58,295 nt of DNA, taken from IMG/VR virus record IMGVR_UViG_3300009428_000009, positions 1 through 58,295 of that record; one strand, given 5' to 3'. The translations under genes were made by a program, and so were the position numbers. Positions 1-44,160 of this stretch are shown here, piece by piece; within the stretch, counting starts at the first letter, position 1, and each line of letters starts with the position of its first letter. The notes below the pieces were generated by a model. The model saw nothing but the letters and a program-made list of their open reading frames with translations, did no database searches and was not told the origin of the DNA. Source of the stretch: a virus.

Positions 1-1397
1 ATACAACAGGTGTGACAACTTCTGGAACACCGGGAAATGCTGGGGCTTACACCCAGATAGTTGTGGCATCTGGTGCGCCGACACTTTATTATTACTGCAC
101 AAATCACTCATCTATGGGATGGAAAGCAAACACTCCAGCATCAGGTCTCTTTCCTATTAATAGACAACCCTTTACGGACAGTAATACAAAATTGCATATT
201 GCTTCAAATATGACTGGTGGCGAACAACTAGCATATAACATAGATGGTACATTAATTATTAATAATAAATCAATAAAACTTAATAATGCTTCAAATGACC
301 TGGGTGACTGGCATCACCATTCATTCAACTATAGAGGATCGGATAATGTTCTATTTTCATATTTTGATGGAAATAAAATAGATTCTATGAATATAGAACT
401 TGATATAGAGGAATTGTCAAAGTCTAACTTATTATTGGCATCAACAGACGATTATGACATAACATCTCATTCTATAGTTAAAAGTTTTTCTAATTTGTAT
501 ATTAAAGAAATGCGTGTTAGTAGAAAAATGAGAGAGAGTGGCGATGTATTTACATTACCCGATGCTGATTTAACAACAGACAGCTATACAGTTATACTAG
601 ATGCAACAGTATCCGGAAATCCATTATCTATAGATGTTAGTCCTTACACAGCAGACGCAAAAGCTTATAGAAAAGTGCATAGTTTTAATCCTGGAATAGA
701 AAGTGCTGCTTTTGAACCTCTCGTAACTATTGGCTCCGGTACAAACGCGCCCGCTAAAAATGAAGAACCGTTAAATTTTACTCTCAGAGATGGTTACAGA
801 CCTGTACCTCATTATGTTTTTAAGTATGAATCAGACGGTCTACTAAGTAATCCTACAGGATATACATCTATTGTAGAATCTGACGGCAGCTACATCGGAG
901 AGCTAACAGGTTTTATACATGATAGTTTAGTTACTCCAGATTCTGATTTAGCTTTTGATAGATCAAGTCATATTATAAAACTTAAAAGGTTTGACGATTT
1001 AGGAGATAGTATCAATTGGTCATACACAAAAAGTATACCTAGAAATAATATTCAACTAGGTAGATATGACGATGATAGTAATTCTATATTTTATGTCAAA
1101 GCGTATGATATATCAGAATCGAATCTTCATTGGAATACAGATTTGAATTTTGTCGGTAAACATATAGATTCAGCAACTCGAACTCCTCATATTGAGAGCG
1201 GCACACGATTAAACGATTCAACATCGGGAGATATAGAAGTCATTTTCGAATACAACGGTGACATGGGAGTTGGCGTTACATATATAGCTGATATACAATA
1301 TATTCGTATATTTGATCTAGATAGTTCAAAAGCGATAGGCTTTGACTCAACTCAAGTCACATTCGATCCATTTCAATCTTATGAGGGATATCTATAA
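1..1397 (+). CDS. Virion/fibre protein, 5'-truncated: cupredoxin-like end plus LamG-like lectin region
   Basis: The frame is already open at the left edge, so the real N terminus is outside the window; a GTG at 12 is only the first possible start inside it. The first ~45 residues repeat the end of the cupredoxin-like domain of the complete 189-residue protein at 36784, including 'YYYCTNHSSMG' with Cys, His and Met in C-x2-H-x2-M spacing. The next ~150 residues (a 'YFDGN' turn, then 'LYIKEMRVSRKMR') resemble the concanavalin/LamG jelly-roll common in phage fibres. The rest is Asp/Ser-rich, probably beta, and unassigned. The stop codon overlaps the next ATG (TAATG). A structural, possibly host-binding role is inferred from composition and from the neighbouring fibre and neck genes. 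Confidence 0.75.
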   Translation, partial: TTGVTTSGTPGNAGAYTQIVVASGAPTLYYYCTNHSSMGWKANTPASGLFPINRQPFTDSNTKLHIASNMTGGEQLAYNIDGTLIINNKSIKLNNASNDLGDWHHHSFNYRGSDNVLFSYFDGNKIDSMNIELDIEELSKSNLLLASTDDYDITSHSIVKSFSNLYIKEMRVSRKMRESGDVFTLPDADLTTDSYTVILDATVSGNPLSIDVSPYTADAKAYRKVHSFNPGIESAAFEPLVTIGSGTNAPAKNEEPLNFTLRDGYRPVPHYVFKYESDGLLSNPTGYTSIVESDGSYIGELTGFIHDSLVTPDSDLAFDRSSHIIKLKRFDDLGDSINWSYTKSIPRNNIQLGRYDDDSNSIFYVKAYDISESNLHWNTDLNFVGKHIDSATRTPHIESGTRLNDSTSGDIEVIFEYNGDMGVGVTYIADIQYIRIFDLDSSKAIGFDSTQVTFDPFQSYEGYL

Positions 1398-20238: not shown

Positions 20239-20442
20239 ATGAAAACTTTTAATGAACTAAAAGAATCGTTGTTGACTGAGAAAAAAGTTAAGGTTGGAGA
20301 TCAAACGATTGTTGTCACTAAAGCTGGTGATCGATTTAAAGCTACTATCGACGGCGAACATTTAGATGATTACGATTCTGAAAAAGATGCTATTAAAATG
20401 GCTAAAGAGTTTATTAAACAATTTTCTAAAGGTAAAGGATAA
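20239..20442 (+). CDS. Small prohead core protein with capsid-targeting N terminus
   Basis: A 67-residue protein between gp67 and the protease, where T4 has the core protein gp68. It starts 'MKTFNELKESLLTE-K'. This resembles the T4 internal-protein capsid-targeting peptide (MKTYQEFI-x-E) and includes a gp21-type cleavage site [L/I]-x-E after residue 14. The mature part 'VKVGDQTIVVTKAGDRFKA' is a small beta domain, followed by 'EKDAIKMAKEFIKQF' as a helix. The ATG at 20239 is preferred over one 33 nt upstream inside gp67 because it begins the tag. The same tag recurs in seven proteins between 34630 and 39969. Confidence 0.72.
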   Translation: MKTFNELKESLLTEKKVKVGDQTIVVTKAGDRFKATIDGEHLDDYDSEKDAIKMAKEFIKQFSKGKG

Positions 20443-20445
20443 GAC

Positions 20446-21093
20446 ATGAAACTAATCGCAGAATATTGTGACCACGATCTATCACTGGTCACTGAAGGTA
20501 AAGGCGAAGCTAAGTCTTATCAAATCGAAGGTGTATTTGCACAAGCTGACCAAAAAAATCGTAACGGTAGAAATTATCCGAAAGCGATTATGGAAAAAGC
20601 TGTAGGCAAATATGTTACAGAACAAGTTTCCAAAGGTCGTGCTGTTGGTGAGTTAAATCACCCCGAAGGCCCGACTATTAATTTGGATAAAGTATCCCAT
20701 CGTATTACGGATCTCAATTTTGAGGGAAATAATGTGATGGGTAAAGCACTTATATTAGATACTCCTATGGGTAAGATTGTTAAAGGTCTGCTAGATGGCG
20801 GTGTTCAACTAGGTGTTTCGACTCGTGGTATGGGAAGTCTGGAAAATCGTAACGGCGTGATGGAAGTTAAAGACGATTTCGTCCTTAGCACTATCGACAT
20901 TGTCCAGGATCCATCTGCACCTAATGCTTTTGTTAATGGAATTATGGAAGGTGTAGAGTGGGTTTGGAATAATGGTCTGATCGAGGCTCAAGACATTGAA
21001 AAAATAGAGACTGAAATAAAAAGAGCACCATCAAGAGCATTGCAAGAAGCGCAAGTTCGTGGGTTTGAAAATTTCCTCTCGTTATTGAAATAA
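20446..21093 (+). CDS. 21: Prohead protease gp21
   Basis: Serine protease that matures the prohead by cutting scaffold, core and capsid proteins after [L/I]-x-E. The 215 residues match T4 gp21 in length and motifs: 'IEGVFAQADQKNRNGRNYPK', then 'GRAVGELNHPEGP' with catalytic His72, then 'GVQLGVSTRGMGSL' with catalytic Ser125. Its own N terminus has 'LSLVTE-G' (residues 13-18), a plausible self-cleavage site of the same consensus. It lies between core and scaffold genes as in T4 and starts 3 nt after the tagged core protein. Confidence 0.95.
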   Translation: MKLIAEYCDHDLSLVTEGKGEAKSYQIEGVFAQADQKNRNGRNYPKAIMEKAVGKYVTEQVSKGRAVGELNHPEGPTINLDKVSHRITDLNFEGNNVMGKALILDTPMGKIVKGLLDGGVQLGVSTRGMGSLENRNGVMEVKDDFVLSTIDIVQDPSAPNAFVNGIMEGVEWVWNNGLIEAQDIEKIETEIKRAPSRALQEAQVRGFENFLSLLK

Positions 21094-34092: not shown

Positions 34093-34100
34093 TATAAATA
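34093..34100 (+). promoter_or_regulatory. T4-type late promoter box before regA
   Basis: Exact TATAAATA 17 nt after the gp62 stop; predicted start near 34106. It could drive regA and read on into the tagged island that begins at 34630. Confidence 0.8.
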
Positions 34101-34144
34101 GCATTGTCATGTAATGAAAATATAAGAAAAAAAGTGAGTTGACA

Positions 34145-34555
34145 ATGGATGAATCAAATATAGTTGCTTGGACTCCGGAATCCATGTTAGAGATTACCTT
34201 AAACGAACCTGACGATTTTCTGAAGGTTCGTGAAACTTTAACTAGAATCGGCGTTTCGAGTAGAAAAGAGAATAAATTATTTCAATCGTGTCATATTCTG
34301 CATAAGCAGGGTAGATACTTTATAGTACATTTTAAGGAACTATTTCTACTAGATGGTAAAAAATCTAACCTTGAAGAAAGTGACGTTGCTAGAAGAAACA
34401 CTATAGCAACACTCATTTCTGATTGGGGATTGATTACTTTAGTTAATGGTAAGGCAGCCGAAATTATGGCACCTCTGAGACAGATTAAGATTATTCCTTT
34501 TAAAGAAAAAGTAAATTGGGAATTGTGTCCCAAATATAACATCGGAAAAAAGTAA
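34145..34555 (+). CDS. regA: Translational repressor RegA
   Basis: RNA-binding repressor that blocks translation of many early mRNAs at their start sites, including its own. The core 'LEITLNEPDDFLKVRETLTR', 'LFQSCHILHKQGRYFIVHFK', 'RRNTIATLISDWGLITLV' and the closing 'WELCPKYNIGKK' are near-identical in pattern to T4 RegA. Met codons at 34145 and 34184 are possible starts. The second gives 123 residues, very close to T4 (122), but the first has the longer purine-rich leader. The 44-dexA-62-regA order is T4-like. A late box upstream is unexpected for a repressor of early genes. Confidence 0.94.
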   Translation: MDESNIVAWTPESMLEITLNEPDDFLKVRETLTRIGVSSRKENKLFQSCHILHKQGRYFIVHFKELFLLDGKKSNLEESDVARRNTIATLISDWGLITLVNGKAAEIMAPLRQIKIIPFKEKVNWELCPKYNIGKK

Positions 34556-34629: not shown

Positions 34630-35193
34630 ATGAAATCTTTTAAGTCGCATATGCTTAATGAAAGCGCCCTAAGTGCATTAAGAGTTGCTACAAAGGCACA
34701 TGAAGGACAATTTAGGAAAAGTGGTGGTAGATATATTGCTCATCCAAAAGAAGTTGCGAAAATAGTCGCAAAATTCAAACCTAAATCCTCAAATCTATCT
34801 GCACTAGTTCAAGCTGCATATCTACACGATACGTTAGAGGACACTGACTTATCGCATGACGATTTGGTCAAACAGTTTGGTGGATTAGTTGCAAATTTAG
34901 TTGATCAATTGACAACTAAGAAAGATGATCTAGAAGCTGCCGGCGGCAAAGGTGAATATATCAAAGGCAAAATGGTTAATATGACAAGCTGGGCACTTGT
35001 TATTAAACTTGCAGATAGATTAGCAAATGTGTCTGATATTGCAAAGCAGCCAGCATCATGGCAAAAGAAATATGCGGGCGATACAAAAATAGCCTTAGAC
35101 GCTGTAAAAGCTGATCGTAAGGATCTTAGTCCTACACATAAGAAAATCATAAAAAACATAGAAACTATTATCAAACCTTATGTGAAAGGATAA
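34630..35193 (+). CDS. Alarmone-hydrolase-like HD protein with capsid-targeting tag
   Basis: HD-domain protein of the RelA/SpoT-MESH1 hydrolase type, which removes the 3' pyrophosphate of (p)ppGpp. The motifs are complete: 'AHEGQFRKSGGRYIAHP' (His38), 'YLHDTLEDTD' (His66-Asp67, Glu70-Asp71) and 'VIKLADRLANV' (Asp129, Asn133). The 187-residue size and lack of a synthetase domain fit small alarmone hydrolases. The N terminus 'MKSFKSHMLNE-S' matches the internal-protein targeting peptide with a gp21-type site after Glu11, so packaging and injection with the DNA are predicted. Such hydrolases can also remove pyrophosphate from the tRNA 3' end. Hydrolase call strong; delivery is inferred. Confidence 0.85.
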   Translation: MKSFKSHMLNESALSALRVATKAHEGQFRKSGGRYIAHPKEVAKIVAKFKPKSSNLSALVQAAYLHDTLEDTDLSHDDLVKQFGGLVANLVDQLTTKKDDLEAAGGKGEYIKGKMVNMTSWALVIKLADRLANVSDIAKQPASWQKKYAGDTKIALDAVKADRKDLSPTHKKIIKNIETIIKPYVKG

Positions 35194-35198
35194 ATGCT

Positions 35199-35546
35199 AT
35201 GAAATCTTTTACTAGATTTATAACTGAATTGACGAAAAATCAACGTAAGAAAAAAGAGTCTTACGCATTGACCTATATCAGGCAAGGTAAGATGGGTATT
35301 CTAAGGATTCGACCATTACCAGGCAGTAAGTGGGTTGAGGTTCGAGGCAAAGCAGGATTTGAAAATGATTACGACGAAAATGATTATTTACACAGAACCA
35401 TGTCTCTTATAGGCAAAGGTGTGAATGTATCAGATTTTGTAAATGGTACAGAGGTTGTATTATATGATAGGGGTGATCCGACAGCAAAGCTAGCCGTAAG
35501 ATCAATTAGAGCAATTGTCAGATATCCAGATGTACAACACTGGTAA
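35199..35546 (+). CDS. Unknown protein with capsid-targeting tag (115 aa)
   Basis: Function not recognised. The N terminus 'MKSFTRFITE-L' is the same tag as in its neighbours, with a predicted cut after Glu10. The mature part is basic at first ('TKNQRKKKESYALTYIRQG') and then a small beta-rich domain ('GILRIRPLPGSKWVEVRG', 'VSDFVNGTEVVLYDRGD', 'VRSIRAIVRYPDVQHW'). It starts 5 nt after the HD gene and is followed 10 nt later by the nucleotidyltransferase gene. Co-packaging with them is expected if the tag works. Confidence 0.75.
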   Translation: MKSFTRFITELTKNQRKKKESYALTYIRQGKMGILRIRPLPGSKWVEVRGKAGFENDYDENDYLHRTMSLIGKGVNVSDFVNGTEVVLYDRGDPTAKLAVRSIRAIVRYPDVQHW

Positions 35547-35556
35547 GGAATAAACC

Positions 35557-36771
35557 ATGAAAAGTTTTATATCTCATTTGAATGAAAGTATGGTCGATGA
35601 CCTTCTGTCAACGCAGATACGAAAAGCAATCAAAAGCGCGGGTGGGAAAATATATCAAATAGGCGGTGTTGTCCGTGATGAAATGATAGGTAAAATATCT
35701 AAGGATCTTGATATTATCATTGTTGGAATCGAGTTAGATGATATAGAAAAAATTCTAAAGCCTCACGGTAAAGTCAACATGGTAGGCAAGTCGTTCGGCA
35801 TTCTAAAATTTGTTCCTACAGGCTCTACTGAAGCTGAGGATGTAGATATTTCTGTGCCAAGAATTGACTCAAAAAGCACAGGCTCAGGTCATAAAGACTT
35901 TGAAGTAGAACTTGGTAAAGGCATTACGCTACAGCAAGATCAGCTAAGGCGCGATTTTTGGATAAATGCACTAGCGAAAGATGTTGATACTGGTGAGATA
36001 ATAGACGTTGATGGTAAAGGCATGAAGGATATAAAGAATAAGCAAATCCGCATGATCAGTCCAACATCGTTCGAGGATGATCCTCTCAGAATGTTTCGAG
36101 CTGTGCAGTTTGCATCAAGATTTGATTTTACTATCGAAAAAGAGACATACAAGGAAATGAAGAAAAGAGCAAGCACTATCTCTACCATTTCTGCAGATAG
36201 ATTCCAAGAAGAATTTAAAAAGCTTTTCAGTAAATCTAAGAAACCTAGTATTGGTGTAAAAATACTATTCGATTCTGGTTTGATGAAACATATATTTAAA
36301 TCAATTAAATTAAAATCAAACGATTTGAAAACAATTGACGCTCTCGGCAAAAGTGATTTTGCTGTATTCATGGGAATATTACTTAGCGACTACGGAAACA
36401 AAGCAGGCTCAACTGCCAAAACAGTCATACGACTTTCGAATACGGATGCAAAAATTGTTCAAAATGTCGTAGACTGGAAAGAAGGTATGAATAATGTTGA
36501 GCTTGCAAACTATGCTAAAAGTGTTGATGTTAGAGCTATAGACGCATTTTTATCTGCAAAAGGATCTAAAACTCTGTCGAGTAGACTAAAGGGTATAAAA
36601 TATATTTCAGTAAAAGACATGCCAATAGATGGTAGAGATGCAGTTAAAGCTGGATTTAAGGGTAAAGCTATTGGAGATGTATTACAATCTGCACTAGACT
36701 ATTCTATTAAGACTGGTAAAAGCAATAAAGAAGATTTATTAAAACATATAAATAGTAAAAACAAACGATGA
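35557..36771 (+). CDS. CCA-adding enzyme/poly(A) polymerase-like nucleotidyltransferase with capsid-targeting tag
   Basis: Class II tRNA nucleotidyltransferase family. Head domain 'IGGVVRDEMIG' (residues 35-45), catalytic 'DLDIIIV' (Asp50, Asp52) and third acid in 'VDISVPR'. The class fingerprints are 'RRDFWINALA' (131-140) and 'EDDPLRMFRAVQFASRF', followed by a helical C-terminal body. Enzymes of this family add CCA or A to RNA 3' ends. The 404-residue length is normal. The N terminus 'MKSFISHLNE-S' is the island tag with a cut after Glu10, which a cytosolic enzyme would not need. Repair of damaged tRNA ends after injection is the suggested role (inference). Its 3' end contains a late promoter. 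Confidence 0.85.
   Translation: MKSFISHLNESMVDDLLSTQIRKAIKSAGGKIYQIGGVVRDEMIGKISKDLDIIIVGIELDDIEKILKPHGKVNMVGKSFGILKFVPTGSTEAEDVDISVPRIDSKSTGSGHKDFEVELGKGITLQQDQLRRDFWINALAKDVDTGEIIDVDGKGMKDIKNKQIRMISPTSFEDDPLRMFRAVQFASRFDFTIEKETYKEMKKRASTISTISADRFQEEFKKLFSKSKKPSIGVKILFDSGLMKHIFKSIKLKSNDLKTIDALGKSDFAVFMGILLSDYGNKAGSTAKTVIRLSNTDAKIVQNVVDWKEGMNNVELANYAKSVDVRAIDAFLSAKGSKTLSSRLKGIKYISVKDMPIDGRDAVKAGFKGKAIGDVLQSALDYSIKTGKSNKEDLLKHINSKNKR
36747..36754 (+). promoter_or_regulatory. T4-type late promoter box inside the nucleotidyltransferase 3' end
   Basis: Exact TATAAATA within the last codons of the preceding gene; predicted start near 36760, about 24 nt before the cupredoxin-like virion gene. Confidence 0.75.
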
Positions 36772-36783
36772 GGAGACCGACAC

Positions 36784-37353
36784 ATGGCGTTCGTAAATAT
36801 TACAAACAATTCTAGTTGGCAATATGATAACGCTCCGCCTGATCCCGGTGCTAATAGCCCATTAAGACCTCTATGGTTAAAACAAACAAATGGTATTAGA
36901 ACTACAAATGGTCATGCTGTGTATACAAGTGTCCGCAGAACAGTAAGTGCTGGTACTGTTACCTTTGCTGTAACAGTTTCAAATCCAGGAGTAGGAAATA
37001 GATATTATATAGATGCAGTTGGGCCCGAGAGAATATTAAGTTTATCAGAAGGTAGAACATATAAATTTGATCAATCAGATTCTTCTAACTCAAACCATCC
37101 ATTAAGATTCAGTGCTACATCTAATGGGACACATGGCGGTGGTAGTGAATACACAACGGGCGTAACAACGTCAGGAACTCCGGGAAGTGCTGGAGCATAT
37201 ACTCAGATAACTGTTGCTGTTGGTGCTCCTAATTTATATTATTACTGTACAAACCACAGCAATATGGGTGGGACTGCAAACACTCCAGCATCTAGTACGT
37301 CTGCCTCTCCTGCAGGCGAAATTAGTAAAACTTTTTGGGATAATGTAGCATGA
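36784..37353 (+). CDS. Cupredoxin-like virion protein
   Basis: A 189-residue protein with the N-terminal segment 'SSWQYDNAPPDPGANSPLRP' seen in marine phage structural proteins, then a cupredoxin-like domain (about 70-165). Potential type-1 copper ligands are all present: His105 in 'NSNHPLRF', Cys155, His158 and Met161 in 'YYCTNHSNMGG'. The C-x2-H-x2-M spacing is that of amicyanin. It lacks the targeting tag that all neighbours carry and has its own late promoter, so it is probably an external virion protein. It is a paralogue of the truncated gene at the left edge (close protein and DNA similarity). The stop overlaps the next start. Confidence 0.7.
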   Translation: MAFVNITNNSSWQYDNAPPDPGANSPLRPLWLKQTNGIRTTNGHAVYTSVRRTVSAGTVTFAVTVSNPGVGNRYYIDAVGPERILSLSEGRTYKFDQSDSSNSNHPLRFSATSNGTHGGGSEYTTGVTTSGTPGSAGAYTQITVAVGAPNLYYYCTNHSNMGGTANTPASSTSASPAGEISKTFWDNVA

Positions 37354-37616
37354 AAACTTTTAAAGCATATATTAGTGAAGGTAGAGACTATAAAAAAGAA
37401 CGCGAAAACTATCTTGGTACTCCTGAGCAGATGAAAAGAAATGCAGCTAGAAAAAGAGCAAGACGCGCCGCTGTTCGGTCTGGAATGGCAGAGGATGGAG
37501 ATGGTCGTGACATCCATCACAAAGATAATAATCCTCTCAACAATGACTTGAAAAATCTAGCGTCAGTCACAGTAAGATATAATCGTAGAGAACCGAGACT
37601 CAGGAATAGAAAATGA
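37350..37616 (+). CDS. Small HNH-motif protein with capsid-targeting tag
   Basis: The 88 residues hold a single HNH-like motif 'RDIHHKDNNPLNNDLKNL' (His56, His57, Asn residues), preceded by a strongly basic helix 'RNAARKRARRAAVRS'. The N terminus 'MKTFKAYISE-G' is the island tag. As I recall, untagged marine relatives begin at about 'GRDYKKE', exactly where the gp21-type cut after Glu10 would leave the mature protein here. A DNA-binding or nicking protein that enters with the genome is possible. The basic helix may also help pack it on DNA. Start and stop both overlap neighbours (ATGA). Confidence 0.8.
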   Translation: MKTFKAYISEGRDYKKERENYLGTPEQMKRNAARKRARRAAVRSGMAEDGDGRDIHHKDNNPLNNDLKNLASVTVRYNRREPRLRNRK

Positions 37617-38569
37617 AAACATTCTATCAATATATGCAATTAGAGGAAGTTTTTAGTCAGGCAAGCTTGTCCAATCATCTCTTTAATATGCCTCTTTTCG
37701 GCGGCAAAGATGGTGATATAATGTCATTTAAAATACCTATGGGTAATGCAAACATAAAAAGAGTGATGCCAACTGAAATTAGAGGCTCTGTTTTTCATGT
37801 CACTAGCGAAAGTAATCACGATAAACTTGTTAAAGGACAAAACAAAAAATCTGGACTGTCCGCATTTAGAAATATGAAACCAAGTAGTATGGATAGAGGT
37901 ATTGCGTCTGGCGGTGGTTTTATCTATGAATTAGATGCTAATCTTTTAGGTTCATTCGAAACGGATGTGCGTTCAGGCGTAGATAAGACTGGTAGAAGAT
38001 GGGTAACATTGCAATCATTATTAGACACTGGATTCCATAACACTTCTGATTTCCCACATATCAACGATTTACATAGACCACTTGAGAAAAACGACTTGGG
38101 TAGTTTACCCAAAGATATAGAAACATATGTGAGAAAAGTATTAGGCAATTTAGATGGACATACAAAAAGAGGCTTACGCCCTGATTGGGTAGATGTACCA
38201 AGACACTTAGAAGATAAACATGGTTCGCCTGACTCAGCTGGCGCAAAAAAAGAGATGGGCAATATTATCAAGGGTTATATTGATACAGTCAACAAATCTT
38301 ATATGAAAAATTCAAAGAAAATAGCGACTGCACTAAAAAAACAATATGTTGATAAGTTGGACAAGGCTGCCTGGGACGAAATGATTGTCAATCAGTATAA
38401 AGTTAAAAAACTACATGTACTACTCTCCGCACCACAATTTGTAAATGGATTATGGTCAGATGTTACAGATGCAATGGAAGATGCTAAAAGTAGAGGTATA
38501 GAGGTTGTTGAGTGGGATAATTCTAGAGATTTACAGTCCCATATATTAGCAACAAGGATTAAAAGTTAA
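37613..38569 (+). CDS. Internal virion protein candidate A (possible ART-like fold)
   Basis: The 318-residue protein is a paralogue of the one at 39028. Shared blocks are 'KGQNKKSGLSAFRNM', 'RGIAS', 'IYELDANLLGSF', 'GRRW', 'IIKGYI' and 'WDEMIVNQYK'. An 'H-x-T' segment ('VFHVTSE', His62), followed about ten residues later by K-x-G-x-N and then Ser-Ala-Phe, recalls the NAD-binding strand of ADP-ribosyltransferases of the PARP/DarT type. This likeness is weak and needs a structure search. The N terminus 'MKTFYQYMQLEE-V' is a variant of the island tag. T4 packages the ADP-ribosyltransferase Alt in the same way, which makes an Alt-like role attractive (inference). Confidence 0.6.
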   Translation: MKTFYQYMQLEEVFSQASLSNHLFNMPLFGGKDGDIMSFKIPMGNANIKRVMPTEIRGSVFHVTSESNHDKLVKGQNKKSGLSAFRNMKPSSMDRGIASGGGFIYELDANLLGSFETDVRSGVDKTGRRWVTLQSLLDTGFHNTSDFPHINDLHRPLEKNDLGSLPKDIETYVRKVLGNLDGHTKRGLRPDWVDVPRHLEDKHGSPDSAGAKKEMGNIIKGYIDTVNKSYMKNSKKIATALKKQYVDKLDKAAWDEMIVNQYKVKKLHVLLSAPQFVNGLWSDVTDAMEDAKSRGIEVVEWDNSRDLQSHILATRIKS

Positions 38570-39027
38570 TGATAAGTTTTAAATCACATTTGGGCGAATC
38601 GTTCAACACTAAAATTCAGTGGAAACAAACTAGCACCAGACCTGAAACTGAAAAATATCTCGGTCGAATAGGTAAACAATTTGTAGAAATGATTTATAAT
38701 TGGTCACAATCTAAAAATATTCCTGAAAAATCGGACGTTAATATTGTATTCAGTGTTGGTGGTGATATGTCTGTTACTGGTAAAGGCGACCAAATGCAAA
38801 TATTTGGCGCAGTAATAAACCACATAAAAGAATTTATAGAGAAAAATCCACAAATAAAAGTCGCAAGTTTTACAGCATCTAAATCTGCCGAAGATGGTGA
38901 GAGCGGAAGCAGAAACAAATTATACAGTAAATTAGTAAAACGATTTGCTACTAAAATGGGCTTTAAAATTGAAGAACTAGATTTGGATGAATTATCTCTT
39001 TATATATTGACAAGGAAAGCAAAATAG
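38569..39027 (+). CDS. Unknown protein with capsid-targeting tag (152 aa)
   Basis: The N terminus 'MISFKSHLGE-S' is the island tag with a cut after Glu10. The mature part has an alpha/beta pattern: 'DVNIVFSVGGDMSVTGKGD', then 'IFGAVINHIKEFIEKNPQIK' and a C-terminal 'SRNKLYSKLVKRFATKMGFK'. The last block (S-R-x-K-L-Y-x-x-L-V-K-R) recurs in small phage proteins that loosely resemble acetyltransferase C termini, but I cannot assign a fold. It lies between the two paralogous candidates and starts on the overlapping stop of the first. Confidence 0.7.
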   Translation: MISFKSHLGESFNTKIQWKQTSTRPETEKYLGRIGKQFVEMIYNWSQSKNIPEKSDVNIVFSVGGDMSVTGKGDQMQIFGAVINHIKEFIEKNPQIKVASFTASKSAEDGESGSRNKLYSKLVKRFATKMGFKIEELDLDELSLYILTRKAK

Positions 39028-39969
39028 ATGCAAAATTTTAAGTCTTATTTATTAGAATTGCATGGTAAAAGTAGTTTATCTCAAAAGCTATTTGATATCA
39101 AAAAAAGCGATAATGAAGGCATTGCAAATTTTTGGATGCCTATGTCCTCAGCACAAATGAAACAGATCACTCCTACTCCTCCAAGAATAACTTGCTGGCA
39201 TATTGCAGCTCAACAGTTTCATAAAACGATGTTTAAAGGTGAGAACAAAAAGCGCGGCATTTCCGCATTTTTGAATATGTCCTCTACGAGTCTTGCTAGA
39301 GGTGTCGCCACTAGTGGTGCTCAAGTTATCTATGAATTGGAAGCTGATTTGTTAGGATCGTTCTCCGGTGATATTGGATCAGAACCCGACAATTCGGGCA
39401 GGCGTTGGTATGAAATGTATGAATTGGCTCGCTCTGATACATACACTGATAAATTTGAAAATACCAAGGTCGATCTAAAGGATTTGGGAACTATGCCTGC
39501 TGATATGGAAAAATATGTTATAAGTGCTATTGAAAGAGTTTGGGGTAAAAAACCTAATAATAAAGGCGAAAGTCTAACCATGTATTGGCAACTTCTGCCT
39601 GCAGAATTAAAGCAAAAAAATAGAAGCGGAGAACTTTCTGATATTATCAAAGGTTATATTGAAGCCGCAACAAAAACATATAAGAAGAATGCTAAAGCAC
39701 TTGCCAAAAAGATACAAAGTCATTATAATGAAGATCGGATGCCAGCTGGACAATGGGACGAGGTAATTGTTAATAATTATAAAATAAGACAAGTACATAT
39801 GACCCATGAAATAAGAAATGATATGCGCTCTGGTGTTCAATTTGAATGGGACAAAGCTGAGGATTGGATTGAAAATAAACTCGGCAAAGAGATTGAGATG
39901 CACGACAGAAATCAAGATTTGGCAATAGAGATTTCTAGAATAAACGCTAATATGCGAATAAAATTTTAA
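39028..39969 (+). CDS. Internal virion protein candidate B (paralogue of candidate A)
   Basis: The 313-residue protein shares with the one at 37613 the blocks 'GENKKRGISAFLNM', 'RGVAT', 'IYELEADLLGSF', 'GRRW', 'DIIKGYI' and 'WDEVIVNNYK', with the His of 'CWHIAAQ' (His58) in place of 'VFHVTSE'. Its N terminus 'MQNFKSYLLE-L' fits the island tag. The pair are diverged outside these blocks, so they may differ in target. A weak ADP-ribosyltransferase-like pattern is the only functional hint. It is the last gene of the tagged island; a strong sigma70 promoter begins 7 nt after its stop. Confidence 0.6.
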   Translation: MQNFKSYLLELHGKSSLSQKLFDIKKSDNEGIANFWMPMSSAQMKQITPTPPRITCWHIAAQQFHKTMFKGENKKRGISAFLNMSSTSLARGVATSGAQVIYELEADLLGSFSGDIGSEPDNSGRRWYEMYELARSDTYTDKFENTKVDLKDLGTMPADMEKYVISAIERVWGKKPNNKGESLTMYWQLLPAELKQKNRSGELSDIIKGYIEAATKTYKKNAKALAKKIQSHYNEDRMPAGQWDEVIVNNYKIRQVHMTHEIRNDMRSGVQFEWDKAEDWIENKLGKEIEMHDRNQDLAIEISRINANMRIKF

Positions 39970-41661: not shown

Positions 41662-44160
41662 TTGGCAGCTTTTTATACGAATGTAGCGCGATACGGCAAC
41701 TCACTCTTATACCGTGGTTATAACGACCACGGTGTGAGAATTGAAAAGCGTGTCAAATTTAAACCCACGTTGTTTGTGCGTAGTAAAACCCAGACAGATT
41801 GGAAATCACTTGACGGCGTTTCTCTACAACCAGTAGATTTTGAATCTATGCGTGATGCTAAAGAATGGCTAGAAACGTATAAAGATATGGATAATGTCAA
41901 AATTTACGGCAACACAAATTACATTCAACAGTTTATTGTATCTGAATTTCCTAAAGATATTCAATTCAATCGTAAACATGTGAATGTTGCAAATCTAGAT
42001 ATCGAAGTTGCGTCAGACGATGGTTTTCCAGAACCAGAAACTGCTAATTATCCTGTAATTTCGATCTGTCTGAAAAGTTCCACAAGCGAAATATATCACG
42101 TTTGGGGTCTTGGTGACTTTGATGCTGATAAGCGTGAAAATCAAGACATAATGGTTCAATACCGCAAATGTAGTAGTGAGACTGAATTACTCGCAAAATT
42201 TATGACATACTGGACAAAGAATACGCCAGACGTTATTACAGGTTGGTACATCAAAAACTTTGATATGCCGTACTTGATTAATCGTGTTGCTAAGTTAGCT
42301 GGCACAGAAGTCTCTAACAAATTCTCACCTTGGGGTCTTGTTAGCGAGAGAAATGTTACTGTCCAAGGTCGCGTTATGAAAAGCTACGAAATTACTGGCA
42401 TATCACAACTTGATTATATTGAATTGTTTAAAAAGTTTGGTTATTCTTACGGCAATCAAGCATCATACAAGTTAGATCATATTGCTAATGTTGTTCTTGG
42501 CGAAAAGAAATTGTCATATGAAGAACACGGCAATCTGCATACTCTTTATAAAAACGACCATCAACTATTCATTGATTATAACATTAAAGACGTTTGGCTA
42601 GTTGGTAAAATTGACGAAAAAATGGATTTGATTACTCTTGCGTTGACCATGGCGTACCGCGGTGGCGTGAATTATGATACGACTATGGGTACTACTGCCA
42701 TATGGGACTCTATTATCCATCGTGATTTGAATAAGAAAAATATCATTATCTCGCCTAAAGATGATAAGCACAAAACTCCTTATCCCGGCGGCTATGTAAA
42801 AGATCCACACGTTGGTGCCCATGAGTGGGTTGTTTCTTTTGATTTGAACTCACTATATCCAAGTCTAATTGTGCAATATAATATGTCACCTGAAACGCTA
42901 GTTGTTGATCCTGATGAGCGTCACCAATCTGGCGTAGAACACTATATGCACAATGCACCTAACGTCAACAAAGATTTATCTATAGCAGCCAACGGCGTGA
43001 CATTTAGTAAAGAAAAACAAGGTATTCTGCCTAAGATTATTTCCGATTATATGTTAGAGCGAAAAGCGACTAAAAAAGCAATGTTGTCAGCAATGCAGAA
43101 ACACGCAGACAATCCATCAGATGCACTTTCAAGAGAAATCAATCAACTTGAAAATCGTCAGATGGCAATTAAAATTCTACTCAATTCATTATATGGCGCA
43201 ATCGGCAATCAACATTTTCGTTACTTCGACCAGCGGATTGCCGAAGGTATCACACTCTCAGGTCAGTTATCCATTCAATGGGCTGAACGCTGCATTAATG
43301 ATGAAATGAATAAGATTTTAAAAACTGATAACACAGATTATGTTATTGCGATGGATACAGATTCACTCTATATTAACTTCGGACCATTCATCAAAAAATT
43401 AGCACCTAAAGATCCAGTAAAAGCACTTGATAAGATTTGTGCAGAGCATTTTGAAGCTGTACTTCAGAAAGGCTATGATGATCTTTTTCGACAGATGAAC
43501 GCATATACAAATCGTATGATTATGGAACGCGAAGCTATTGCAGACCGTGGTTTATGGATGGCAAAAAAGCGTTATATCTTGAATGTGCATAATAACGAAG
43601 GTGTTCAATATAAAGAACCGAAACTAAAAATCATGGGTATTGAAGCTGTAAAATCGTCAACTCCTCAAGTTGTCCGTGATAAATTTCTGCAAGTTTTTAA
43701 GATTATCATATCTGGTTCAGAAATGGATACACGAAAATTTATCAACGATTTTAAGACAGAGTTTAAATCACTGCCGCCCGAAGCAGTATCTTTTCCTCGT
43801 GGTTGTAGCGAAGTGAAAAAATATGCAGATCGTAAAACGATCTTTAAGAAAGGTACACCAATTCACGTTCGTGGCGCACTATTGTATAACAATCAAATAA
43901 AAGATAAAGCGTTAGATAAAAAATACTCTCCTATTCAAAACGGCGAAAAAGTTTTATTCAGCTATCTAAAGATGCCTAATCCAATTCGACAAAATGTTAT
44001 ATCTTTTCCAGACTATATTCCGCCGGAAATGAATTTAGCTAGATACGTTGATTATGAAACACAATTTTCTAAAACCTTTCTTGATCCTATCACACCAATT
44101 CTAGATGCTGTTGGTTGGTCTGTTGAAGAAAAAGCTACCCTAGAAGATTTTTTTGGTTGA
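41662..44160 (+). CDS. 43: DNA polymerase gp43 (family B)
   Basis: Replicative polymerase with proofreading exonuclease. Exonuclease motifs are 'VANLDIEVAS' (D-x-E), 'NFDMPYLINR' (second Asp) and 'YNIKDVWLV' (YxxxD-like). Polymerase motif A is 'SFDLNSLYPSLI', motif B 'KILLNSLYGAIGN' and motif C 'AMDTDSLYI'. A C-terminal 'TLEDFFG' corresponds to the T4 clamp-binding tail 'SLDFLFG'. The 832 residues are slightly shorter than T4 (898). The start is TTG, with 'GGAG' eight nt upstream; a nearby ATG is out of frame. Its stop lies in the -35 of the next promoter. Confidence 0.97.
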   Translation: MAAFYTNVARYGNSLLYRGYNDHGVRIEKRVKFKPTLFVRSKTQTDWKSLDGVSLQPVDFESMRDAKEWLETYKDMDNVKIYGNTNYIQQFIVSEFPKDIQFNRKHVNVANLDIEVASDDGFPEPETANYPVISICLKSSTSEIYHVWGLGDFDADKRENQDIMVQYRKCSSETELLAKFMTYWTKNTPDVITGWYIKNFDMPYLINRVAKLAGTEVSNKFSPWGLVSERNVTVQGRVMKSYEITGISQLDYIELFKKFGYSYGNQASYKLDHIANVVLGEKKLSYEEHGNLHTLYKNDHQLFIDYNIKDVWLVGKIDEKMDLITLALTMAYRGGVNYDTTMGTTAIWDSIIHRDLNKKNIIISPKDDKHKTPYPGGYVKDPHVGAHEWVVSFDLNSLYPSLIVQYNMSPETLVVDPDERHQSGVEHYMHNAPNVNKDLSIAANGVTFSKEKQGILPKIISDYMLERKATKKAMLSAMQKHADNPSDALSREINQLENRQMAIKILLNSLYGAIGNQHFRYFDQRIAEGITLSGQLSIQWAERCINDEMNKILKTDNTDYVIAMDTDSLYINFGPFIKKLAPKDPVKALDKICAEHFEAVLQKGYDDLFRQMNAYTNRMIMEREAIADRGLWMAKKRYILNVHNNEGVQYKEPKLKIMGIEAVKSSTPQVVRDKFLQVFKIIISGSEMDTRKFINDFKTEFKSLPPEAVSFPRGCSEVKKYADRKTIFKKGTPIHVRGALLYNNQIKDKALDKKYSPIQNGEKVLFSYLKMPNPIRQNVISFPDYIPPEMNLARYVDYETQFSKTFLDPITPILDAVGWSVEEKATLEDFFG

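What the first reader, a model, noticed from the sequence alone, without database searches (positions are those of the whole stretch)
34630..39969. Island of seven proteins with a shared capsid-targeting N terminus: a predicted injected effector set
Seven of the eight proteins encoded here start with a ~10-residue peptide: MKSFKSHMLNE, MKSFTRFITE, MKSFISHLNE, MKTFKAYISE, MKTFYQYMQLEE, MISFKSHLGE and MQNFKSYLLE. Each ends in [L/I]-x-E, the T4 gp21 protease consensus. The T4 internal proteins carry a ~10-residue capsid-targeting sequence of the type MKTYQEFI-x-E. The same phage has LVTE in gp21, LLTE in a core protein (20239) and LTE-A in gp23. The mature domains are unrelated to one another, so the shared start is not common ancestry of whole genes. 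The one untagged gene (36784) is an external virion type with its own late promoter. The inference is that these proteins are packed in the head, trimmed and injected.
Basis: partly seen in the sequence, partly recalled or inferred. Interest (0 to 1): 0.93.

Follow-up and report, generated by a model that had tools for sequence, protein, structure and literature searches.

The report
Phage head-delivery tag on cargo enzymes
A marine relative of phage T4 puts the same ten-residue address label on seven proteins, among them a predicted alarmone hydrolase and a tRNA-repair enzyme, which probably loads them into the phage head so they enter the host with the DNA; published mass spectrometry of related phages fits this.

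Summary
All seven N-terminal peptides are at the stated coordinates. With a tag profile trained only on unrelated cargo genes of other phages, the seven island ORFs and the prohead-core gene 20239 are the only 8 of 72 window ORFs above threshold. The tag matches the T4 capsid targeting sequence at the four residues mapped genetically (4, 7, 8, 10; PMC9026906). A profile trained without T4 ranks IPIII and IPII second and third among 285 T4 ORFs. In cyanophage S-CREM2 all five proteins scoring 8 or more are in the published virion proteome (p=3e-5 among non-structural proteins). Relatives carry the tag on 38 unrelated families. A late promoter precedes regA in 18 of 19 island-bearing loci and 0 of 49 others. 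Corrections: 37613 and 39028 are paralogs, and the whole island lies behind late promoters. Cleavage and injection remain inferred. Verdict: a marine (Kyanoviridae-like) version of the T4 internal-protein system carrying enzymes: an alarmone-hydrolase-type HD protein, a CCA-adding-type enzyme, a GNAT-like protein, a small HNH protein and two unassigned families. The most novel reading, an injected tRNA 3'-end repair kit, is untested.

The parts
34093..34100 (+). late promoter TATAAATA, 52 bp upstream of regA, reading into regA and the first half of the island
   Evidence: present upstream of regA in 18/19 island-bearing loci and 0/49 others
34145..34555 (+). regA translational repressor, gene just upstream of the island
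   Evidence: Pfam Translat_reg E=1.5e-43, for the ORF beginning at 34139
34630..35193 (+). tagged (MKSFKSHMLNE|S) stand-alone HD_4 protein, small-alarmone-hydrolase / SpoT-hydrolase type
   Evidence: Pfam HD_4 5e-15; PDB RelA/SpoT and MESH1 hydrolases 7e-21 to 1e-8; tag score 11.8
35199..35546 (+). tagged (MKSFTRFITE|L) 115-aa basic protein of unknown function, tagged in all full-length relatives seen
35557..36771 (+). tagged (MKSFISHLNE|S) class II tRNA nucleotidyltransferase (CCA-adding / poly(A)-polymerase family)
   Evidence: Pfam PolyA_pol 1e-18 and RNA-binding domain 8e-15; NCBIfam CCA models to 1e-37, below curated cut-off; PDB CCA-adding enzyme 2e-21
36747..36754 (+). late promoter TATAAATA inside the 3' end of 35557, upstream of the second half of the island
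36784..37353 (+). untagged tail-fibre/baseplate-type protein; shares a repeat with the first gene of the window; not part of the cargo
   Evidence: PHROG tail families to 1e-18
37350..37616 (+). tagged (MKTFKAYISE|G) 88-aa HNH_3 protein; in L100/L204 the same domain is the C-terminal part of a cytidylyltransferase-type protein
   Evidence: Pfam HNH_3 1.4e-6
37613..38569 (+). tagged (MKTFYQYMQLEE|V) member of a large multicopy cargo family, paralog of 39028
   Evidence: ADP-ribosyltransferase fold only a weak hint
38569..39027 (+). tagged (MISFKSHLGE|S) 152-aa protein with predicted GNAT-like acetyltransferase fold
   Evidence: AF2 pLDDT 77; Foldseek PDB top hits GNAT, best E=1.6e-4, prob 1.0, TM 0.37; tagged relatives in Vibrio phages
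39028..39969 (+). tagged (MQNFKSYLLE|L) member of the same family as 37613
   Evidence: AF2 pLDDT 84 with residues 1-12 below 50
20239..20442 (+). prohead-core protein (gp67/68 position) with the same N-terminal signal (MKTFNELKESLLTE)
   Evidence: tag score 11.7, the only non-island ORF above 8
20446..21093 (+). gp21 prohead protease (Peptidase_S77), predicted to remove the tag
   Evidence: PF03420 E=1.6e-41

Best explanation
The island is a cargo operon for delivery inside the phage head. Each protein begins with a capsid targeting sequence of about ten residues equivalent to that of T4 internal proteins: an aromatic residue at 4 and an aromatic or His at 7 bind the prohead core; Leu/Ile at 8 and Glu at 10 are the gp21 cleavage site. 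The genes are expressed late from two TATAAATA promoters, the proteins enter the core, gp21 removes the tag, the mature proteins stay with the packaged DNA, and they are ejected into the next host with it. The mature parts are mostly enzymes that can act before any phage gene is expressed: a (p)ppGpp/tRNA-pyrophosphate-type HD hydrolase, a CCA-adding-type enzyme, a GNAT-like protein, a small HNH protein, a 115-aa unknown and two copies of an unassigned family. Shown here: the shared bounded tag, its specificity, its association with virion proteins in relatives, and late-promoter linkage. Inferred: cleavage, injection, and the functions in the host.
For: Tag enrichment and specificity. Between unrelated tagged proteins identity falls to background (0.05-0.06) just after the tag, with peaks at residues 2, 4 and 10. 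T4 genetics places targeting at residues 4 and 7 and processing at 8 and 10 (PMC9026906). A marine-trained profile ranks T4 IPIII and IPII 2nd-3rd of 285 ORFs. S-CREM2: the five top-scoring of 219 proteins (cytidylyltransferase, APH-like kinase, SAM hydrolase, gp136, gp13) are all in purified virions, Fisher p=3e-5 among non-structural proteins, and gp6, the gp15-14-13 operon and gp154 have TATAAATA 28-30 bp upstream. S-SCSM1 and S-SZBM1 virion NMNAT/cytidylyltransferase are tagged. Late promoter 18/19 versus 0/49. In contigs chosen by the 37613/39028 family, 250 of 731 ORFs are tagged, spanning 38 mature families. Cargo is basic, like T4 internal proteins (p=2e-11). Gene fusions keep an [LI]xE junction.
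Against: No virion proteome exists for this phage. S-CREM2 numbers are small (5 proteins) and CsCl virions can carry contaminants. In S-SZBM1 the best-scoring tagged protein (105 aa) was not detected. Many virion-detected proteins lack the tag, e.g. S-SCSM1 ORF90, 92 and 93. Depletion of internal cleavage sites in cargo is only mild (p=0.014). T4 Alt and IPI are missed by the profile, so it is not the only route. A few HNH relatives have a degenerate tag (ITDE). The loci are related, so counts are not independent.
Confidence: 0.87

Rival explanations
1. The tag only recruits proteins to the prohead core as accessory scaffold; they serve head assembly and are not meant to act in the next host.
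For: The prohead-core protein 20239 carries the same signal; T4 IPIII mutants slow head assembly (PMC9026906).
Against: Cargo are folded enzymes of 38 or more unrelated families with divergent, swappable repertoires; five tagged proteins remain in mature S-CREM2 virions; T4 IPI-III are injected anti-restriction proteins (PMC12373910).
Confidence: 0.06
2. The shared N terminus is a translation or expression leader (or binds another phage/host protein) with no role in packaging.
For: Nucleotide identity in the tag is high even between unrelated genes (0.72 at codon 10 against 0.28 after it), as a cis-acting RNA element might give.
Against: Constraint peaks at residues 4 and 10 and fits the T4 targeting and processing residues; tag score predicts virion presence; the tag is absent from equally late tail genes of the window.
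Confidence: 0.04
3. The genes are a mobile cassette (HNH-linked) whose common start reflects recent recombination at gene starts, not function.
For: An HNH protein lies in the island; L100 carries the same genes at another locus with the tag MKTFYQY on four different proteins; within-contig tags are slightly more alike than between contigs (0.572 vs 0.554, p=0.004).
Against: The tag persists on homologs down to 26-30% identity and across Kyanoviridae, T4 and Vibrio Straboviridae phages; recombination alone would not keep F4, L8 and E10.
Confidence: 0.03

Closest known systems
Phage T4 internal proteins IPI, IPII, IPIII with the capsid targeting sequence (CTS)
   Same: N-terminal peptide of about 10 residues ending [L/I]-x-E, aromatic at residues 4 and 7, gp21 protease in the same genome, clustered accessory genes with unrelated mature parts; T4 IPII/IPIII are recovered by a profile trained on marine phages
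   Different: T4 IPs are small inhibitors of GmrSD restriction enzymes; here the cargo includes enzyme-type domains up to 404 aa and the phage is Kyanoviridae-like, with the island next to regA
Virion-associated enzymes of cyanophages (S-CREM2 SAM hydrolase, APH-like kinase, NMNAT/cytidylyltransferase; S-SCSM1 and S-SZBM1 NMNAT-like proteins)
   Same: Enzymes found in purified virions; they carry the same tag, and the S-CREM2 ones the same late promoter
   Different: The S-CREM2 paper does not use the words targeting, cleav- or N-terminal; cargo differs from the window's
T4 Alt
   Same: ADP-ribosyltransferase packaged in the head and injected
   Different: Its N terminus does not score with this profile; an ADP-ribosyltransferase assignment for 37613/39028 is not established
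Phage SSU5 small alarmone hydrolase PaSpo
   Same: Stand-alone small alarmone hydrolase of a phage, shown to undo tRNA 3'-CCA pyrophosphorylation by toxSAS FaRel2 (PMC11559606)
   Different: No packaging signal is described for it in the passages read

Membership tests
T4-type CTS-bearing internal proteins | N-terminal peptide of 10-19 residues with targeting residues 4 and 7 and processing residues 8 and 10 | tested here: met
   all seven island genes; position profile against T4 genetics
T4-type CTS-bearing internal proteins | gp21 (S77) prohead protease encoded, cleaving after [L/I]-x-E | tested here: met
   PF03420 E=1.6e-41; LVTE, LLTE and LTE-A in gp21, core protein and gp23; cleavage itself not testable
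T4-type CTS-bearing internal proteins | late expression | tested here: met
   TATAAATA at 34093 and 36747, conserved; by sequence only
T4-type CTS-bearing internal proteins | present in mature virions | not testable with these tools
   no proteome for this phage; met for tagged proteins of relatives S-CREM2, S-SZBM1 (one of two) and S-SCSM1
T4-type CTS-bearing internal proteins | tag removed by the protease; protein injected with DNA | not testable with these tools
   needs N-terminomics and an injection assay
T4-type CTS-bearing internal proteins | mature parts unrelated to one another | tested here: met
   six distinct families among seven proteins; 37613 and 39028 are paralogs
Small alarmone hydrolase (34630) | stand-alone HD_4 domain aligned to RelA/SpoT and MESH1 hydrolases, HD and ED pairs and ADRL-N motif conserved, no synthetase domain | tested here: met
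   187 aa only; activity not tested
CCA-adding enzyme (35557) | class II nucleotidyltransferase head and RNA-binding domains | tested here: met
CCA-adding enzyme (35557) | CCA rather than A-adding or poly(A) specificity | tested here: inconclusive
   best NCBIfam models are CCA enzymes but below curated cut-offs; pcnB and A-adding models also match
ADP-ribosyltransferase (37613/39028) | ART fold | tested here: inconclusive
   top PDB hit is the ART CteC but E=0.21, prob 0.13; no Pfam ART hit in 44 members
GNAT acetyltransferase (38569) | GNAT fold | tested here: inconclusive
   Foldseek E=1.6e-4, prob 1.0, top hits GNAT, but TM 0.37, 7-sequence alignment and pLDDT 77

The most novel reading that the evidence does not exclude
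The island is a pre-loaded translation-protection kit. An injected small alarmone hydrolase strips pyrophosphate from tRNA 3' ends (or clears alarmones) and an injected CCA-adding enzyme rebuilds trimmed tRNA ends, so that toxSAS/CapRel-type or tRNA-trimming defences are countered from the moment of infection. More broadly, marine T4-like phages would use one interchangeable N-terminal tag to deliver dozens of unrelated enzymes, a secretion-like effector system whose repertoire can be read from sequence.
Probability: 0.3. Interest if true: 0.93.

Novelty: new variant of a known kind. Interest (0 to 1): 0.83.

Why it matters
Published work names the T-even internal proteins as injected, and cyanophage papers report puzzling enzymes in virions without a signal. 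The tag joins the two. A ten-residue profile predicts which proteins a T4-like phage carries in its head, recovers known T4 internal proteins, fits published cyanophage proteomes, and points to 38 unrelated cargo families in marine contigs. That makes an open question (what do virions inject, and why) directly testable, and gives a route to new anti-defence proteins. A packaged alarmone-hydrolase-type protein and CCA-adding-type enzyme would be an unusual delivered cargo.

Tried and rejected
Assigning 37613/39028 as ADP-ribosyltransferases: sequence motifs looked suggestive to me, but the fold search is not significant, Pfam finds nothing in 44 members and a profile search of PDB sequences finds nothing; left open. 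tblastn of 35199 and of 37613 in isolate phages: no match. A simple regex test on S-CREM2 was weaker than the profile (p=0.018 and 0.012 among non-structural proteins for two patterns fixed beforehand); a third pattern there was made after seeing the data and is not relied on. Strong depletion of internal [LI]xE in cargo as proof of cleavage: only mild. Concerted evolution of tags within a genome: significant but tiny effect. PADLOC found no defence-system match beyond a weak homing endonuclease for the HNH.
Full report
WHAT WAS CLAIMED AND WHAT IS THERE. The window is a virus record of 58,295 bases from a T4-like phage: gp21 protease at 20446-21093 (PF03420, E=1.6e-41), regA at 34145, DNA polymerase at 41662. 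Its gp21 is closest to that of phage C48C1 (Kyanoviridae; 74% identity). Between regA and an Hsp20 gene lie eight + strand ORFs.

MORE THAN CHANCE. I built a position-specific profile of the tag (residues 2-4 and the five residues ending in Glu). A version trained on 57 non-redundant tags from genes of other contigs with no similarity to any window protein scores 8 or more for exactly eight of 72 window ORFs: the seven island genes and the prohead-core gene 20239. Shuffled island N termini give a mean of 0.1 of 8. In 1169 ORFs from 80 regA-neighbourhood contigs only four reach 8. Caution: the training tags were found with a first profile that included island relatives and the window's own tags, so the two profiles share an idea of the motif, though not sequences homologous to the window.

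THE TAG IS A SEPARATE, BOUNDED MODULE. Profile searches with the 37613/39028 family brought 79 marine loci; the search patterns lay in the mature domain, not in the tag. Of 109 distinct N termini of this family 82 score 8 or more, and several of the others look like mis-called starts, although most homologs are only 25-36% identical to the window protein. In those contigs 250 of 731 + strand ORFs are tagged, in 38 mature families including DUF6267, NT5C-like, AAA/zeta-like kinase, RimK-like ATP-grasp, methyltransferase and cytidylyltransferase proteins. Between unrelated tagged proteins, identity is 0.83 at residue 4 and 0.64 at residue 10, then falls to 0.09 at residue 11 and 0.05-0.06 from residue 12 on. 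Positions 2-10 were selected by the profile; the absence of any shared sequence beyond it was not. HD and CCA homologs in isolate phages mostly align only from about residue 14-23 on, so the tag is an addition to an older domain. L100 carries the same gene set at another locus, beside DUF6267 and cytidylyltransferase-type genes, with the tag MKTFYQY on four different proteins.

LINK TO THE T4 SIGNAL. In T4 IPIII, the first ten residues suffice for packaging; residues 4 and 7 govern targeting, residues 8 and 10 processing, and Asp at 10 blocks processing but not targeting (PMC9026906). The marine tag is constrained at 4 and 10 and, less, at 7 and 8. A profile trained without T4 ranks gp61.1, IPIII and IPII first to third of 285 T4 ORFs. 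It misses IPI and Alt, so it is specific but not complete. In KVP40-like Vibrio phages, relatives of 38569 begin MKFSEYQNELTEAF or MKFSEYQRLNES.

LINK TO VIRIONS. The virion proteome of cyanophage S-CREM2 is published (PMC10665884). Scoring its 219 annotated proteins with the first profile (trained without it), the five best are all virion-detected: cytidylyltransferase gp154, APH-like kinase gp14, SAM hydrolase gp6, gp136 and gp13. Among non-structural proteins this is 5 of 5 above threshold against 21 of 188 below, Fisher p=3e-5. The genes gp6, the gp15-14-13 operon and gp154 have TATAAATA 28-30 bp upstream. The virion-detected cytidylyltransferase of S-SZBM1 (MRFRQFIIE) and NMNAT of S-SCSM1 (MKSFLQFLKE) are tagged as well; a second tagged S-SZBM1 protein of 105 aa was not detected. 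The S-CREM2 paper describes the enzymes as possibly encapsulated and does not mention a signal. Two explanations for detection remain open: true packaging, or carry-over of abundant late proteins, which the authors themselves raise. That T4 IPII and IPIII are found by the same signal makes packaging the better one.

EXPRESSION. All nine exact TATAAATA sites in the window are on the + strand, and seven lie 34-72 bp upstream of a gene start: head, tail and core genes, regA and 36784. One precedes regA by 52 bp and one precedes 36784 by 37 bp, so both halves of the island can be read late. A site upstream of regA is present in 18 of 19 loci where a tagged gene follows regA, and in 0 of 49 other regA loci (p=1.5e-15; loci are related, so the p value overstates independence).

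CLEAVAGE. Indirect evidence only. The [L/I]-x-E site is kept in nearly all tags. Where the 38569 domain is fused behind another tagged domain, the junction reads KYESYIAE-AFNTK or KYESHIGE-AFNTK, a tag remnant that would still be cut. Internal [LI]xE is mildly rarer in cargo than in untagged proteins (observed/expected 0.98 against 1.19, p=0.014). Cargo is more basic than untagged proteins (p=2e-11), as are T4 internal proteins.

WHAT THE CARGO MAY DO. 34630 is a stand-alone HD_4 protein aligned to RelA/SpoT and MESH1 hydrolases with the metal and catalytic motifs kept. 35557 is a class II tRNA nucleotidyltransferase; CCA specificity is likely but not proven. 38569 is predicted to have a GNAT fold. 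37350 is a small HNH protein; in L100/L204 its domain forms the C-terminal part of a cytidylyltransferase-type protein. 35199 and the 37613/39028 family are unassigned; an ADP-ribosyltransferase fold for the latter is only a weak hint. The pairing of a hydrolase and a CCA enzyme invites one idea. toxSAS toxins, including CapRel, pyrophosphorylate tRNA (for FaRel2 the 3' CCA end), and a phage SAH (PaSpo of SSU5) removes that mark (PMC11559606 and PMC9712102). An injected SAH plus CCA enzyme would protect tRNA ends before phage genes are expressed. This is a hypothesis; stringent-response control or NAD(P)-type chemistry are alternatives for the HD protein.

COMPARISON AND NOVELTY. Internal proteins with this signal are known in T-even phages, where IPI-III inhibit GmrSD restriction enzymes (PMC12373910), and a review proposes that the signal lets T4-like phages package various proteins. 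In the library searched I found no report of the signal in cyanophages or other marine T4-like phages; the library lacks preprints and most subscription journals. I therefore rate it a new variant of a known kind: the same delivery principle in another phage family with a large, enzyme-rich repertoire.

LIMITS. This phage has no proteome; the record is a fragment; gene starts were called by a simple script; profile thresholds were chosen by me; many loci are close relatives; S-CREM2 supplies only five positive proteins.

Noticed in passing
L216 18966-19130 (T4 gene 61.1, NC_000866): T4 gp61.1 (54 aa, MKTFKEFIKED...) scores highest of 285 T4 ORFs with the marine tag profile, above IPIII and IPII: a candidate unrecognised internal protein.
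   Followed up: partly
L114 7704-10313 (S-CREM2 gp12): The virion-detected protein annotated as Cas9 nuclease has a tag-like stretch LRFASFMAEA 16 residues inside its annotated start, suggesting a mis-annotated start or an internal signal.
   Followed up: no
L089 3703-4542, L099 1636-2472, L102 11745-12590: Two cargo domains fused in one ORF with a tag remnant at the junction (KYESYIAE-AFNTK): a possible polyprotein cut by the prohead protease.
   Followed up: partly
window 34093-34100 and relatives: A late promoter lies upstream of regA, normally an early gene, only in phages with tagged genes behind it (18/19 versus 0/49).
   Followed up: yes
L204 12285 onward (contig of L100): The HNH-like domain of 37350 is the C-terminal part of a 768-aa cytidylyltransferase-type protein.
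   Followed up: no
L206 1111-3361 (Vibrio phage phi-Grn1): Three tandem genes related to 38569 all start MKFSEYQ with an LTE or LNE site: likely internal proteins of KVP40-like phages.
   Followed up: partly
L107 82-1131, 12203-16866: Methylophilales phage Melnitz has a tagged RimK-like ATP-grasp protein and a run of tagged genes around its DUF6267 and cytidylyltransferase-type genes.
   Followed up: no
L144 1898-2329: A tagged 143-aa protein with a weak 2H phosphoesterase match (PF13563, E=0.008); a possible injected cyclic-nucleotide or RNA-end enzyme.
   Followed up: no
window 12-1397 and 36784-37353: The partial first gene of the window and 36784 share a tail-fibre type repeat (TTSGTPGxAGAYTQ...LYYYCTNHS).
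   Followed up: no
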